A DNA stretch of 8,731 bases from the NCBI GenBank assembly GCA_003695725.1, contig RFHX01000256.1, positions 1 through 8,731 of the forward strand. Reading direction: 5' to 3'. Shown one piece after another: positions 4,148 through 8,731 of the stretch. A program made the position numbers and the translations under genes. Source of the stretch: J061 sp003695725 [NCBI: Candidatus Schekmanbacteria bacterium]. GTDB taxonomy: Bacteria; Schekmanbacteria; GWA2-38-11. Each line of letters starts with the position of its first letter. The stretch's first letter is position 1. Below the pieces are notes generated by a model, which searched no databases, had not been told where the DNA came from, and saw only the letters and a program-made list of their open reading frames with translations.

Positions 4148-4156
4148 TGAAATTAT
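4139..4156 (+). promoter_or_regulatory. Small A/U hairpin over the flgI stop and flgJ start
   Basis: ATAATTT (4139-4145) and AAATTAT (4150-4156) are perfect complements around an AGTG loop. The flgI stop TAG (4145-4147) lies at the loop, and the first two bases of the flgJ ATG (4155-4157) are in the 3' arm. With no Shine-Dalgarno for flgJ, this fits coupled translation. The stem is all A-U and may be chance in AT-rich DNA. Confidence 0.35.
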
Positions 4157-4958
4157 GGCAACAAATATAGATAAAACATTAGTGAAATTCTTCTCAAATA
4201 GACTGAAGGAAGATATAAAATCTCTTCAAGCAGAAAGAAGAACTGCAAATGCAAATAAATCTTTGAAAAATCTACCTCCTAAGGAAGCTTTGAAAGAATT
4301 TGAATCCCTTTTTGTCTTCTATATGCTCAAAGAAATGACAAAGAATAACACATCCCAGGGGTTATTTGGAAAAGGATTCGGGAATGAATATTTCACAGAT
4401 ATGTTTAATCAAGAAGTGGCAAGAGCGCTTTCAAAAGGCGGTGGAATAGGAATTGCTGATTTTATAGAGAAAAACAGTAAGTTAAAAATTATAAAAAAAG
4501 ACAATAGAAATAGAATAGAAAACTTTCTGCCTTCACAACAACACAAGCATAGCAAGGAAAAAGAAAAAGTAAGTATCAGTAAGATTGTGCAGGGTGGAAG
4601 AATTTCTTCTCCATTTGGAGTAAGAAATGATCCATTCACTGGGGAAAAACGTTTTCATGATGGGATAGATATTGCTTGTGCTGAAGGGACCAAGGTTTAT
4701 CCTATTATGTCCGGTAAGGTTATATTTAGTGGAGAAATGAGAGGATATGGGAATGTAGTAATCATTGAACATAATAACGGAATCCAATCTTATTACGCAC
4801 ATAATAAGGTTAATTTCGTCAAAAAAGGAGATCTTATTACAACAAATACACCAATAGCATTATCCGGAAAAACAGGGAGGGCTACGGGGCCTCATCTACA
4901 TTTCGAGCTTCGAGCCGACAATAAACCTCAAAACCCTGAAAAATATTTAAAAATTTAG
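4155..4958 (+). CDS. flgJ: FlgJ-type rod-binding protein fused to an M23 (LytM-like) peptidase
   Basis: A 267-residue, two-domain protein. Residues ~35-106 match the FlgJ rod-binding domain (LKEFESLFVFYMLKEMTKN at 46-64, then FGNEYFTDMFNQEVARALSKGGGIGIADFI). A charged linker (~107-146) leads to an M23 endopeptidase domain (~147-267). The zinc site looks intact: H168 and D172 (HDGID), with H249 in PHLHFE; the catalytic-type histidines H216 (YYAH) and H247 are also present. It probably caps or nucleates the rod while cutting peptide cross-links in the wall to let the rod through. Enterobacterial FlgJ instead carries a GH73 glucosaminidase. No signal peptide is seen, so export through the flagellar channel is likely. 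The ATG lacks a clear ribosome-binding site and sits 7 bases after the flgI stop, so it is probably coupled to flgI translation. Confidence 0.93.
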   Translation: MATNIDKTLVKFFSNRLKEDIKSLQAERRTANANKSLKNLPPKEALKEFESLFVFYMLKEMTKNNTSQGLFGKGFGNEYFTDMFNQEVARALSKGGGIGIADFIEKNSKLKIIKKDNRNRIENFLPSQQHKHSKEKEKVSISKIVQGGRISSPFGVRNDPFTGEKRFHDGIDIACAEGTKVYPIMSGKVIFSGEMRGYGNVVIIEHNNGIQSYYAHNKVNFVKKGDLITTNTPIALSGKTGRATGPHLHFELRADNKPQNPEKYLKI

Positions 4959-5843: not shown

Positions 5844-7517
5844 ATGCCCGGAATTATATCAATACTCGACATTGCTAAAAAATCATTGCTTGTAAATCAA
5901 GCGGCAATGAATGTTACCGGCAACAACATAGCCAATGTAAATAGTAAGGGATATAACCGCCAAGAAGCGATAACTTCTCCTTCAGAAGCATACACATATG
6001 CAGGGAAATACTTTGGCTCAGGAGTAGATTTAGATGAGGTAAGAAGAGTTTATGATAAATATTTAGTAAATCAATTCAATATAGAAACAGCCAATTTAGG
6101 GAAGCTCGATGAAAAAAGGTCTATGCTTGAAAGAATCGAAGCCTTTATGACCTCCTCAGAAGAAAATGGGCTTGGTTCAGCAATATCAGATTTTTTCAAT
6201 TCCTTACAAGATTTAGCTAATGACCCTTCAAGTTCTTCCGCCCGCACCGCTGTAATTTCAGAAGCAAGTTACTTGGCAGACCTCTTTCATAGCACAGATA
6301 CTGAGCTTGATAATATTGAAAAGAATATTGATTTTTCAGCTGAGGGGATAATCAATGAAATTAACAGTATTGCAGAAAGAATTGCCGGTTTAAATGAAGA
6401 GATAGCTAATATTGAAACTTCCGGTGTCAAGGCAAACGACTTAAGAGATGACCGAGATTTACTGTTAAACGACTTGGCTTCAAAGATAGATATAACTTAT
6501 TTTGAAGACGATTCTGGCCAAGTCACAGTTATGATAAATGGTGGCAAGGCATTGGTCCATAGAACTTCTTATTGGTCCCTCAAAACAGAACCTGATTATT
6601 CCAATGAAAACATTTTAACAATAAAATATATTGGAGAAGGGAATACAGAAGCAGATATAACAAATAAGATCCAAGGTGGAAAATTAAAGGGGCTTTTAGA
6701 TATAAGAAATGATATCCTGAAAAAGTATCAGTCTAAAATCGATACGCTTGCTTATTCTATAATAAACGAAATAAATATTCTTCATCAGGCAGGAAGAGGT
6801 CTCGACGGCTCAACAGGTAATCTCTTCTTTAATGCAATATCACCTTCAGCATATGGAAGCAGGGAAAATCAAGGCAGTGCTGATGTATCCTCGGTTTCCG
6901 TTTTATCTCCCTCATCTTTGACATATGACAACTATGAAATAAGATTTACCTCATCTTCGTCCTTCGATATATACAACACCACCACAAAACAATATGTATC
7001 AACAGGGAATAGCTATAGCTCCGGAAGTAATATTGATTTCGAAGGGTTAAGAGTAGTTTTAAGTGATTCAGGCGGTACTCCTGCATCAGGCGATATCTTC
7101 TACATAAAACCGGGAGAAGGAGCAGCAAAAAATATAGAAGTTAATTCTACTATATCCTCAAATATAAATAAAATTGCTGCTGGTCTCACATCGAATCCTG
7201 GTGACAACGAAAATGCATTACAGATGGGAGAACTTCAGTTTTCACCTATTCTTGATTCTGGCAGCTCTACTTTCGAAGAATATTACGGCAACATTCTTTC
7301 TGACCTTGGAAATGATGTCCTTCTTTCGACAGACGAATACAACACGCAAGAAGGATTAATTACTGCATTAAAAGAAAGAATAGAATCAAAATCAGGCGTT
7401 TCACTCGATGAAGAATTGAGTAATTTGCTCAAATTTCAGCACAGTTATCAAGCGTCAGCGAAACTCATTACAGTTGCAGACGAACTCCTTGATACTCTAG
7501 TAAATTTAATAAGATAG
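5844..7517 (+). CDS. flgK: FlgK, hook-filament junction protein 1 (HAP1)
   Basis: A 557-residue protein, close to enterobacterial FlgK (~547). With FlgL it forms the junction between hook and filament after export by the flagellar type III system. The N-terminal rod/hook signature GNNIANVNSKGYNRQ is at 26-40. A long helical D1 region follows (GSAISDFFNSLQDLANDPSS, DLRDDRDLLLNDLASKIDI, then LKGLLDIRNDILKKYQSKID). A Ser/Thr-rich beta insertion near residues 340-435 has the YEIRFTSSSSFDIYNT ... ASGDIFYIKP pattern of the outer domains. The C-terminal helix (LSNLLKFQHSYQASAKLITV, then ADELLDTLVNLIR) completes the core. The ATG at 5844 is 3 bases after flgN and has AAAGG 8 bases upstream. It is encoded next to its likely chaperone FlgN. 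Confidence 0.97.
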   Translation: MPGIISILDIAKKSLLVNQAAMNVTGNNIANVNSKGYNRQEAITSPSEAYTYAGKYFGSGVDLDEVRRVYDKYLVNQFNIETANLGKLDEKRSMLERIEAFMTSSEENGLGSAISDFFNSLQDLANDPSSSSARTAVISEASYLADLFHSTDTELDNIEKNIDFSAEGIINEINSIAERIAGLNEEIANIETSGVKANDLRDDRDLLLNDLASKIDITYFEDDSGQVTVMINGGKALVHRTSYWSLKTEPDYSNENILTIKYIGEGNTEADITNKIQGGKLKGLLDIRNDILKKYQSKIDTLAYSIINEINILHQAGRGLDGSTGNLFFNAISPSAYGSRENQGSADVSSVSVLSPSSLTYDNYEIRFTSSSSFDIYNTTTKQYVSTGNSYSSGSNIDFEGLRVVLSDSGGTPASGDIFYIKPGEGAAKNIEVNSTISSNINKIAAGLTSNPGDNENALQMGELQFSPILDSGSSTFEEYYGNILSDLGNDVLLSTDEYNTQEGLITALKERIESKSGVSLDEELSNLLKFQHSYQASAKLITVADELLDTLVNLIR

Positions 7518-7526
7518 AGGTAAGGT

Positions 7527-8411
7527 ATGAGAGTAACTTATAAAATGATTCTCAGCAGTTTGCTTGATAATATCAGCAATATTAGTGAAAGAATAAATAA
7601 TTTAGAAAAGCAGGCTGCCTCAGGAAAAAGAATCAATAAGCCCTCAGACGACCCCTATGCTTACAATAAATCGCTCAGTTTTAAATCGCTCAAAAAATCT
7701 ATGTCTCAATTCGAAAAAAATCTAAGTTCTGGGAAGGAATGGCTTTCTACTACAGATACCGCATTGCAATCTGCAAATGACCTTCTTATAAGAGCAAAAG
7801 AAATTGCTCTATCGGCTTCAAATGATACAATGAGCGCAGACGAGAGAGAAACTGCCGCAATTGAAGTTCAAGGGCTATTCGAACAAATGGTCCAAATTGC
7901 CAACACGAAACTTGGTTCAAAATACATCTTTGCCGGCACAGCCGTTTCAACAGAAGCTTTCGACAGCAACGGAAACTACAATGGAAATTCAAGCAATATA
8001 AATATTGAAATCGACGCCAATAAAAGAATGACAATAAACTTTACAGGCGACAATATCTTCAAGGGTGCATCAGGGGGAGAAGATGTGTTTGATGTTTTGA
8101 GCGATTTGAAGACAGCTCTTGAAAACAACGACACTGACAACATAGCATCCCAAATCAGCAGAATAGACACTTCAATGAATCAAGTCCTTGATTATAGAGC
8201 AAATACAGGCGCAAAAATAAATCAAATTGAAAATACTGAGACTTGGTATGAAGATTCAAAAGCCAGATTAGATATTTTGTTGTCTGAAAATGAAGATGCT
8301 GATATTATTGAAGTATTGACACAACTTGCAAAAGAACAGTCAGCTTATAAAGCTACACTTGCAACAACATCTGAGATTATGTCAAACACATTAGCTGAAT
8401 TTTTAAAATAA
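7527..8411 (+). CDS. flgL: FlgL, hook-filament junction protein 3 (HAP3)
   Basis: A 294-residue flagellin-like protein that sits between FlgK and the flagellin filament. The N-terminal helix begins MRVTYKMILSSLLDNI, followed by the SGKRINKPSDDP motif at 32-43 common to FlgL and flagellin, then a long D1 helix (LSSGKEWLSTTDTALQSAND). FlgL-specific features are ANTKLGSKYIFAGT and a short central domain. The C-terminal helix ends EVLTQLAKEQSAYKATLATT. The lack of the flagellin N-terminus (IxxNxxSLxAQ) and the place after flgK favour FlgL over flagellin. The ATG at 7527 is preceded by GAGG at 7517-7520, overlapping the flgK stop, with AAGG closer in. FlgN is expected to chaperone it. Confidence 0.96.
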   Translation: MRVTYKMILSSLLDNISNISERINNLEKQAASGKRINKPSDDPYAYNKSLSFKSLKKSMSQFEKNLSSGKEWLSTTDTALQSANDLLIRAKEIALSASNDTMSADERETAAIEVQGLFEQMVQIANTKLGSKYIFAGTAVSTEAFDSNGNYNGNSSNINIEIDANKRMTINFTGDNIFKGASGGEDVFDVLSDLKTALENNDTDNIASQISRIDTSMNQVLDYRANTGAKINQIENTETWYEDSKARLDILLSENEDADIIEVLTQLAKEQSAYKATLATTSEIMSNTLAEFLK

Positions 8412-8417
8412 CATAAC

Positions 8418-8439
8418 TTTTTGCCAAGGAAGGTAAAAA
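8418..8439 (+). promoter_or_regulatory. Hairpin with a CsrA-type target presenting the csrA ribosome-binding site
   Basis: TTTTTGCC (8418-8425) pairs with GGTAAAAA (8432-8439): eight pairs including one G-U, closed by C-G around the six-base loop AAGGAA (8426-8431). The loop plus closing pair reads CAAGGAAG, an exact fit to the CANGGANG hexaloop target known for CsrA/RsmE. The loop is also the csrA Shine-Dalgarno AAGGAAGG, and the stem ends next to the ATG at 8440. CsrA binding here would block ribosomes. Confidence 0.65.
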
Positions 8440-8673
8440 ATGCTTATAATAACCCGGAGGGTTGGAGAATCAATTATTGTTGGAGACAACATTGAAATAA
8501 ATGTCTTGGAAATAAAAGGGAAACAGATAAAAATTGGAATCACAGCGCCTGAAGATGTTTCAATCTATAGAAAGGAGATATACCTAAAAATTATTGAAGA
8601 AAACAGATTAGCAGCCAATGCAGTCAAGAAAGGTATTGAAAGCCTTCAACTATTGTTAAAAGAAAAAAAATAA
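8440..8673 (+). CDS. csrA: CsrA, post-transcriptional regulator (RNA-binding)
   Basis: A 77-residue CsrA. The homodimer binds GGA-containing hairpins in mRNA leaders and usually blocks translation. The family core is intact: an MLIITRRVGESIIVGD start, VLEIKGKQIKIGITAP, then R44-K-E-I-Y. The RNA-contacting residues of E. coli CsrA are kept (R6, R7, R44), with conservative Ile for Leu4 and Ile for Val42. It has a longer C-terminal tail than E. coli CsrA (61 residues), resembling CsrA proteins that partner with FliW, and keeps an EEN motif at 53-55 in the region reported to matter for FliW binding in Bacillus. A probable fliW follows. The start is secured by AAGGAAGG at 8426-8433. The leader and first codons form hairpins with GGA in the loops, so autoregulation is likely. 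Confidence 0.97.
   Translation: MLIITRRVGESIIVGDNIEINVLEIKGKQIKIGITAPEDVSIYRKEIYLKIIEENRLAANAVKKGIESLQLLLKEKK
8451..8463 (+). promoter_or_regulatory. Second GGA-loop hairpin within the first csrA codons
   Basis: AACCC (8451-8455) pairs perfectly with GGGTT (8459-8463) and leaves GGA (8456-8458) as the loop; opening the last C-G pair gives loop CGGAG. It spans csrA codons 4-8, including CGG-AGG for R6-R7, less common arginine codons in a window that mostly uses AGA. GGA to GGA distance from the leader hairpin is 28 bases, suitable for one CsrA dimer to bridge both. Confidence 0.5.
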
Positions 8674-8691
8674 CTTTTCAAGATTAAAAAA

Positions 8692-8731
8692 ATGCAAATT
8701 GAGATCAATAATATTGGCACAGTAGATTTTG
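8692..8731 (+). CDS. fliW: Probable FliW, CsrA antagonist and flagellar assembly factor (5' end only)
   Basis: Only the first 13 codons are present, from ATG at 8692 to the right edge: MQIEINNIGTVDF. This resembles the FliW start (M-x-I-E-T-x2-F/H-G-x-I/V-x). FliW binds CsrA and flagellin in a partner switch and is very often encoded next to csrA, which supports the call as much as the residues do. It begins 18 bases after the csrA stop, with only a weak possible ribosome-binding site (AAG at 8680-8682). The fragment is too short for certainty. Confidence 0.62.
   Translation, partial: MQIEINNIGTVDF

What the first reader, a model, noticed from the sequence alone, without database searches (positions are those of the whole stretch)
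8418..8463. csrA start flanked by two GGA-loop hairpins: predicted CsrA autoregulation
Seen: an 8-pair stem (8418-8425 with 8432-8439) whose loop AAGGAA is the csrA Shine-Dalgarno and fits CANGGANG exactly, plus a perfect 5-bp hairpin (8451-8463) with loop GGA in codons 4-8. The two GGA motifs are 28 bases apart. Known: CsrA/RsmE dimers bind GGA in hexaloops and can bridge two sites; E. coli csrA represses its own translation through leader sites. Inferred: CsrA here shuts off its own synthesis by closing both hairpins, and FliW, encoded next, would relieve this. The second hairpin also involves the codons for the RNA-contacting R6-R7.
Basis: partly seen in the sequence, partly recalled or inferred. 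Interest (0 to 1): 0.62.

Follow-up and report, generated by a model that had tools for sequence, protein, structure and literature searches.

The report
csrA messenger carries its own off-switch
The start of this bacterium's csrA gene folds into a hairpin that looks like a docking site for the CsrA protein itself, so the protein probably limits its own production; the same hairpin, rebuilt with different letters, recurs on csrA genes of distant bacteria, chiefly those whose csrA is not tightly joined behind fliW.

Summary
Both hairpins are present as described. The first (8418-8439) is strongly supported as a CsrA operator on csrA's own ribosome-binding site. Of 30 CCANGGANGG sites in the 2.77 Mb assembly it has the longest uninterrupted stem. 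In a survey of 55 csrA genes from 44 genomes of different families, 12 have a CANGGANG hexaloop with a stem of at least 3 pairs at the Shine-Dalgarno; 15 of 356 other genes do, all flagellin or flaG genes. In 18 csrA leaders chosen by loop alone the stem covaries (0.534; shuffled mean 0.169; best slid frame 0.150). It follows gene architecture: 0 of 58 csrA genes less than 20 nt behind fliW, 7 of 16 further behind, 8 of 12 with csrA before fliW (as here), 1 of 25 with no fliW in the stretch held (cut chosen after seeing the data). The second hairpin (8451-8463) is absent from the only csrA-bearing relative in the phylum, lacks the A that CsrA sites prefer, and is unproven. CsrA autoregulation is known in E. 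coli and Legionella; the cross-family operator on FliW-type csrA and its link to gene order look new. Binding and repression are untested.

The parts
7527..8411 (+). flgL, the gene before csrA; its stop lies 28 nt before the csrA start
   Evidence: ORF; Pfam Flagellin_N; 58.5% identical to the gene at the same place in G001; the name flgL is from position and recall
8418..8439 (+). Hairpin 1: 8-pair stem with hexaloop AAGGAA that holds the csrA Shine-Dalgarno; proposed CsrA operator
   Evidence: covariation supports the inner 4 pairs, not the outer ones
8425..8432 (+). CAAGGAAG core (CANGGANG) of the proposed operator
   Evidence: C-A-n-G-G-A-n-G is kept as CAGGGATG in G001
8440..8673 (+). csrA, 77 aa, FliW-type CsrA with a C-terminal extension
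   Evidence: Pfam CsrA 2.5e-23; best solved relative 5dmb_D, residues 2-75; the only csrA found in the assembly
8451..8463 (+). Hairpin 2: 5-pair stem, GGA triloop in codons 4-8; role unproven
8692..8731 (+). Start of fliW, cut off by the contig end; 18 nt after the csrA stop
   Evidence: read, name inferred; csrA-fliW order in G001; FliW fragment (profile 49-121) near the flagellin gene on contig C341

Best explanation
Hairpin 1 is a CsrA operator. When free CsrA is plentiful it binds the CANGGANG hexaloop, stabilises the stem and covers the Shine-Dalgarno of its own mRNA, so ribosomes cannot start csrA. The site sits between flgL and csrA, so if these genes share one message it lowers csrA, and perhaps the weakly initiated fliW behind it, without touching flgL. 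FliW, by taking CsrA away, would lift the block together with the block on flagellin. Shown here: the structure, its specificity, its recurrence and covariation in distant csrA genes, and its tie to gene order. Inferred: co-transcription, binding, repression and relief by FliW. Hairpin 2 may help as a weak second contact or be a plain structure; it is not needed for the model.
For: Exact CANGGANG hexaloop over the SD. Same-family genome G001 keeps it with different letters, AACC-AGGGAT-GGTT. In the phylum of L016's genome 8 of 12 csrA rows have ACC-hexaloop-GGT. Domain survey 12 of 55 against 0 of 297 genes left after removing every flagellin-, flgL- or flaG-like gene by homology (Fisher 7e-11), and against 15 of 356 with those kept in (3.8e-5). 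The 15 hits are 12 of 13 flaG-like genes and 3 of 46 flagellin- or flgL-like genes, the 3 being flagellins; C. jejuni CsrA binds the flaA and flaG leaders (PMC4894983, passages). Covariation: 87.5% of cells paired against 67.6% shuffled and at most 55.6% slid; 17 cells changed on both sides; 0 of 500 shuffles reach the score. Gene-order link. The same genome's flagellin leader has an 11-pair GGA hairpin and CAAGGAGG at its SD.
Against: No binding or expression data. Only one relative in the same phylum has csrA, so conservation close by rests on one pair. 43 of 55 csrA genes of the domain survey, 24 of 25 on other named contigs and all 27 rows from the phylum of L005's genome lack the hairpin. 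The fold energy of the window leader is unremarkable. The stem in G001 has only 4 uninterrupted pairs and its z-score is -0.23. The outer four pairs of the window's stem have no covariation support (positions 5-8, P 0.27-0.61). SELEX ligands mostly had four or fewer contiguous pairs (PMC7652899, passages), so an 8-pair stem is not required for binding and may even be unfavourable.
Confidence: 0.8

Rival explanations
1. Ordinary SD-sequestering hairpin. The stem only damps translation of csrA (or senses temperature) by partly hiding the SD, and CsrA does not bind it.
For: Hairpin 1 alone folds at -7.0 kcal/mol and would slow ribosome entry by itself.
Against: A plain hairpin would not need CANGGANG or a loop of exactly six. 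Of 15 domain-survey csrA genes with a GGA-hexaloop stem of 3 or more, 12 have CANGGANG. Of the 44 control genes with such a stem 15 have it, and all 15 are flagellin or flaG genes. Sliding the partner, which changes the loop size, destroys the pairing.
Confidence: 0.12
2. Two-site operator: CsrA bridges hairpins 1 and 2, 28 nt apart, as the first reader proposed (compatible with the best explanation).
For: The 28-nt spacing is not far from the 21 nt of C. jejuni flaA and the 18-nt optimum quoted there. Synonymous-codon P = 0.006. Two other lineages, L050 and L069, have an SD hairpin plus a CAAGGAAG hexaloop at the same codons, 30 and 28 nt apart.
Against: Absent in G001; GGA in a triloop without the A at -2; no clear excess of AGG at codon 6 overall (22 of 121 against about 20 expected). 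The third GGA of C. jejuni flaA, in the second codon, was not protected by CsrA.
Confidence: 0.2
3. Chance: A-rich DNA around an SD happens to pair, and the comparative pattern is shared ancestry or hindsight.
For: The gene-order cut (20 nt) and the hairpin definition were set after seeing leaders. Several positives are related (8 from one phylum). Fold z-scores are small.
Against: The 12 positives of the domain survey come from 12 genomes of different families. Covariation beats slid frames, which keep relatedness. Outside csrA the motif hits only flagellin and flaG genes among the 356 examined.
Confidence: 0.06

Closest known systems
E. coli csrA autoregulation (Yakhnin 2011, seen only through the review PMC7652899, passages)
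   Same: CsrA binds the csrA leader, one site overlapping the SD, and represses its own translation
   Different: E. coli uses four leader sites, five promoters and CsrB/C sRNAs, and Gammaproteobacteria lack FliW. Here there is one strong SD hexaloop in a 28-nt gap of a flagellar gene run, next to fliW
Legionella pneumophila CsrA binding its own mRNA (PMC5338858, passages)
   Same: Self-binding and inhibition of csrA translation
   Different: Gammaproteobacterial system; no comparison of site structure was made here
B. subtilis Hag-FliW-CsrA module (PMC6529632, passages; PMC7652899, passages)
   Same: csrA, fliW and flagellin together; flagellin leader carries CsrA-type sites
   Different: In B. 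subtilis fliW overlaps and precedes csrA and csrA translation is coupled to it. Here csrA precedes fliW and carries its own operator-like hairpin
C. jejuni flaA leader SL1/SL2 (PMC4894983, passages)
   Same: GGA hexaloops, the second over the ribosome-binding site, with compensatory changes among species
   Different: That is the flagellin mRNA; the passages I saw describe no csrA operator

Membership tests
CsrA/RsmE-type RNA site (CANGGANG apical hexaloop) | GGA in a hairpin loop with A two bases before it (ANGGAN) | tested here: met
   Hairpin 1: AAGGAA, closing C-G
CsrA/RsmE-type RNA site (CANGGANG apical hexaloop) | Hexaloop geometry kept by covariation | tested here: met
   18 leaders chosen by loop only; score 0.534 against at most 0.150 for slid frames
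CsrA/RsmE-type RNA site (CANGGANG apical hexaloop) | Hairpin 2 as a second such site | tested here: not met
   Triloop GGA, no A at -2, absent in G001
CsrA-repressed mRNA | Site overlaps the SD or start codon | tested here: met
   GGA at -12 of the csrA start; the stem ends at the base before ATG
CsrA-repressed mRNA | CsrA binds and lowers translation | not testable with these tools
   Needs a gel shift and a reporter
CsrA protein family | CsrA profile over the domain | tested here: met
   PF02599 82.2 bits, cut-off 27, profile positions 1-51 of 53
FliW-CsrA-flagellin homeostasis module | fliW and flagellin present with a FliW-type CsrA | tested here: met
   FliW fragment and flagellin on C341; CsrA aligns through residue 75 with 5dmb_D
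FliW-CsrA-flagellin homeostasis module | Flagellin leader with CsrA-type sites | tested here: inconclusive
   An 11-pair hairpin shows AGGA in its loop and the SD is CAAGGAGG, but the SD hexaloop stem is only 3 pairs (+1.2 kcal/mol) and is not in the predicted fold
FliW-CsrA-flagellin homeostasis module | fliW overlapping and upstream of csrA (B. subtilis layout) | tested here: not met
   flgL precedes csrA and fliW follows it in G001 and, cut off, in the window

The most novel reading that the evidence does not exclude
Bacteria with FliW set the dose of CsrA in one of two interchangeable ways. Either csrA is translationally coupled to an overlapping upstream fliW, or, where that coupling is lost or the order reversed, csrA carries its own CsrA operator at the Shine-Dalgarno. 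The hairpin here is one of many independent or anciently retained cases.
Probability: 0.5. Interest if true: 0.68.

Novelty: new variant of a known kind. Interest (0 to 1): 0.52.

Why it matters
Oshiro and colleagues showed that B. subtilis holds FliW, CsrA and flagellin near 1:1:1 partly by coupling csrA to fliW, and predicted that other systems must also limit FliW-CsrA abundance (PMC6529632, passages). A CsrA operator on csrA itself, found where that coupling is missing, is a direct candidate, and it makes the question testable by gene order alone. It would also extend CsrA autoregulation beyond the sRNA-based gammaproteobacterial systems to FliW-based flagellar ones.

Tried and rejected
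Fold energy as evidence: z-scores -1.20, -1.83 and -1.17 do not carry the case, so I used geometry and comparison instead.

Rfam: nothing credible in 7400-8731 (five hits, all far below gathering scores).

Hairpin 2 as a conserved site: rejected as stated, because G001 lacks it and codon 6 shows no clear AGG excess. A related coding hexaloop in other lineages is noted, not claimed.

More csrA from viral contigs: 12 stretches matched a pattern and none encodes a relative.

A first version of the control dropped only the 15 hits from 356 genes (0 of 341). That is circular, so I replaced it by removing every flagellin-, flgL- or flaG-like gene by homology whether it hit or not (0 of 297) and by keeping all genes (15 of 356).

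Rows dropped. 131 csrA starts gave 121 after identical -40..+30 stretches were merged. Six weak or incomplete places (G008, G019 twice, G139, G141 twice) and 12 of 42 csrA were not fetched. Seven matches below the Pfam cut-off were left out. The control genes come from my own simple gene caller, which keeps only starts with a GGA, GGAG or similar upstream. 'No fliW' means none in the 1-3 kb held on either side (less at contig ends), not absence from the genome. In the domain survey 19 such rows come from 10 genomes by my tally, two of which (G076, G137) have another csrA beside fliW; counted by genome Fisher is 0.0016 instead of 4.5e-5. L001 was counted as csrA-fliW although the contig ends in fliW.

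Full report
WHAT IS THERE. The window is the end of a flagellar gene run, flgG-flgA-flgH-flgI-flgJ-flgM-flgN-flgK-flgL-csrA, followed by the first codons of fliW (gene names from Pfam families and recalled synteny). csrA (8440-8673) starts 28 nt after the flgL stop. Hairpin 1 (8418-8439) fills most of that gap: eight pairs, one of them G-U, closing the loop AAGGAA that is the Shine-Dalgarno. Hairpin 2 (8451-8463) lies in codons 4-8.

IS HAIRPIN 1 SPECIAL IN ITS GENOME? Pattern CCANGGANGG occurs 30 times in the 2.77 Mb assembly, against 20 for the reversed pattern. The csrA copy has the longest uninterrupted stem, 8, the next best being 6. In 186,724 bases of the genome 4 of 5380 GGA have a hexaloop stem of 8 or more, and none of 62 CANGGANG has more than 4; with flanks shuffled P is 0.00095. 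Fold energy is unremarkable, so the case does not rest on it.

RELATIVES. The phylum has four held genomes, two with csrA. The other one, G001, has AACC-AGGGAT-GGTT at the same place: the same CANGGANG frame with other letters. I then took csrA from 27 named contigs, from a survey of 145 genomes of which 50 have a csrA match (apart from G000 and G001 those 50 are each of a different family), and from the phyla of L016's and L005's genomes. After merging identical stretches there were 121 csrA starts. A CANGGANG hexaloop with a stem of 3 or more at the SD is found in 2 of 2 (own phylum), 8 of 12 (phylum of L016), 12 of 55 (domain survey; 55 genes of 44 genomes, the 12 from 12 genomes by my tally), 1 of 25 (other named contigs) and 0 of 27 (phylum of L005).

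CONTROL. The same test on 356 other genes (109 from this genome, 247 from the other loci) gave 15 hits. All 15 are filament genes: 12 flaG-like (ten checked by Pfam; L003 and L026 by homology) and 3 flagellins (L017 and L032 by sequence; L158 by Pfam). Sorting all 356 by homology, the hairpin is on 12 of 13 flaG-like genes, 3 of 46 flagellin- or flgL-like genes (40 of these are closest to flgL) and 0 of 297 others. The domain-survey csrA genes, 12 of 55, exceed the 297 others (Fisher 7e-11) and also the full control with filament genes kept (15 of 356, 3.8e-5). C. jejuni CsrA binds the flaA and flaG leaders (PMC4894983, passages). The test therefore picks out known kinds of CsrA target and csrA.

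COVARIATION. Eighteen csrA leaders were chosen by the loop motif only, which fixes the closing C-G pair but not the rest. The four inner pairs are formed in 87.5% of cells, with 17 cells changed on both sides and a covariation score of 0.534. Shuffles average 0.169 (0 of 500 reach the observed value) and frames slid by 1-3 bases reach at most 0.150. The second pair is C-G, A-U or U-A; the third G-C, A-U, U-A or G-U; the fourth U-A, A-U, C-G, G-C or G-U. One search gives the same by position: second pair P 0.014, third 0 of 2000 shuffles, fourth 0.004, and no signal from the fifth pair outward. Two of the 18 (L039, L091) have no stem. The long A-U outer part of the window's stem is thus its own feature.

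GENE ORDER. I built a FliW profile by iteration from G001's FliW (105 open frames) and sorted all 121 rows: fliW upstream with a gap under 20 nt, 0 of 58 with the hairpin; gap of 20 or more, 7 of 16; csrA before fliW, 8 of 12 (window included); fliW elsewhere in the stretch, 7 of 10 (nine of the ten rows from one phylum); no fliW in the stretch, 1 of 25. In the domain survey alone: 0 of 16, 6 of 10, 6 of 10 and 0 of 19. Uncoupled against coupled gives Fisher 1.7e-4. Uncoupled against no fliW gives 4.5e-5, or 0.0016 counted by genome. On the other named contigs only 1 of 6 uncoupled fliW-csrA rows has the hairpin. The 20-nt cut was set after looking. An SD that lies inside fliW is also constrained by coding. 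The rule is therefore a strong lead, not a proof. It fits B. subtilis, where csrA translation is coupled to the overlapping fliW and the authors predict a further limit on FliW-CsrA abundance (PMC6529632, passages).

HOW IT WOULD WORK. CsrA, a dimer, binds ANGGAN hexaloops, and binding over an SD excludes the ribosome (PMC7652899, passages). Here that would make csrA self-limiting. The FliW layer is present: a FliW fragment lies upstream of a PilZ gene and the flagellin gene on contig C341, G001 has csrA-fliW directly, and this CsrA aligns through residue 75 with 5dmb_D. The flagellin leader has an 11-pair GGA hairpin (z -4.15 for the leader) and CAAGGAGG at the SD, as expected of the main target, though the SD hexaloop itself is weak there and not in the predicted fold. 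fliW starts 18 nt after csrA without a clear SD (read), so autorepression might lower both; this is inference, as is co-transcription.

HAIRPIN 2. G001 has no GGA hairpin there. Arg codon 6 is AGG in 22 of 121, about as expected. The long stem is unusual for the codons (P 0.006) but its energy is not (P 0.05). A better-formed coding site, CAAGGAAG in a hexaloop over codons 5-8, occurs in L050, L069, L072 and 8 of 27 rows of the phylum of L005 (P between 0.006 and 0.06 in the six of these tested). A coding contact is possible in general, but the triloop here is a poor one.

NOVELTY. CsrA autoregulation is known in E. coli (PMC7652899, passages) and L. pneumophila (PMC5338858, passages). Searches of the paper library listed no paper whose title or abstract start reports a CsrA operator on csrA in a FliW system, and the passages read show none. 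One search showed 30 of 55 papers and 16 of 17; most subscription papers are not held, so this is not proof of absence. I rate it a new variant of a known kind.

Noticed in passing
L158:1904-2000 (minus strand), flagellin leader of the same genome: An 11-pair hairpin with AGGA in its loop lies about 40 nt upstream of the CAAGGAGG Shine-Dalgarno of the flagellin gene (leader z -4.15), like a two-site CsrA leader.
   Followed up: partly
L002, L003, L004, L006, L008, L009, L010, L012, L014, L020, L023, L026, a gene after csrA: flaG-like genes in these loci (most titled Lachnospiraceae) carry a CANGGANG hexaloop over the Shine-Dalgarno, while the csrA genes of these 12 loci do not.
   Followed up: partly
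L110, L111, L113, L115, L116, L128, L131, L136 and L050, L069, L072, csrA codons 3-9: The codons for the Arg-Lys motif spell CAAGGAAG in the hexaloop of a 5-7 pair hairpin, a possible CsrA site inside csrA coding sequence at the same codon as hairpin 2.
   Followed up: partly
window 4155-4958: FlgJ-like protein with a rod-binding domain fused to a peptidase M23 domain; from memory, the familiar FlgJ fusion carries a glucosaminidase instead.
   Followed up: no
L016, 1558-4417: csrA sits between flgK and flgL in this contig titled Candidatus Cloacimonadota, another layout in which csrA is not directly behind fliW.
   Followed up: partly
window 8692-8731 and contig C341 of the same genome: fliW appears split by the assembly: its first 13 codons end this contig, and a FliW fragment from profile position 49 onward lies near the flagellin gene on C341.
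   Followed up: partly
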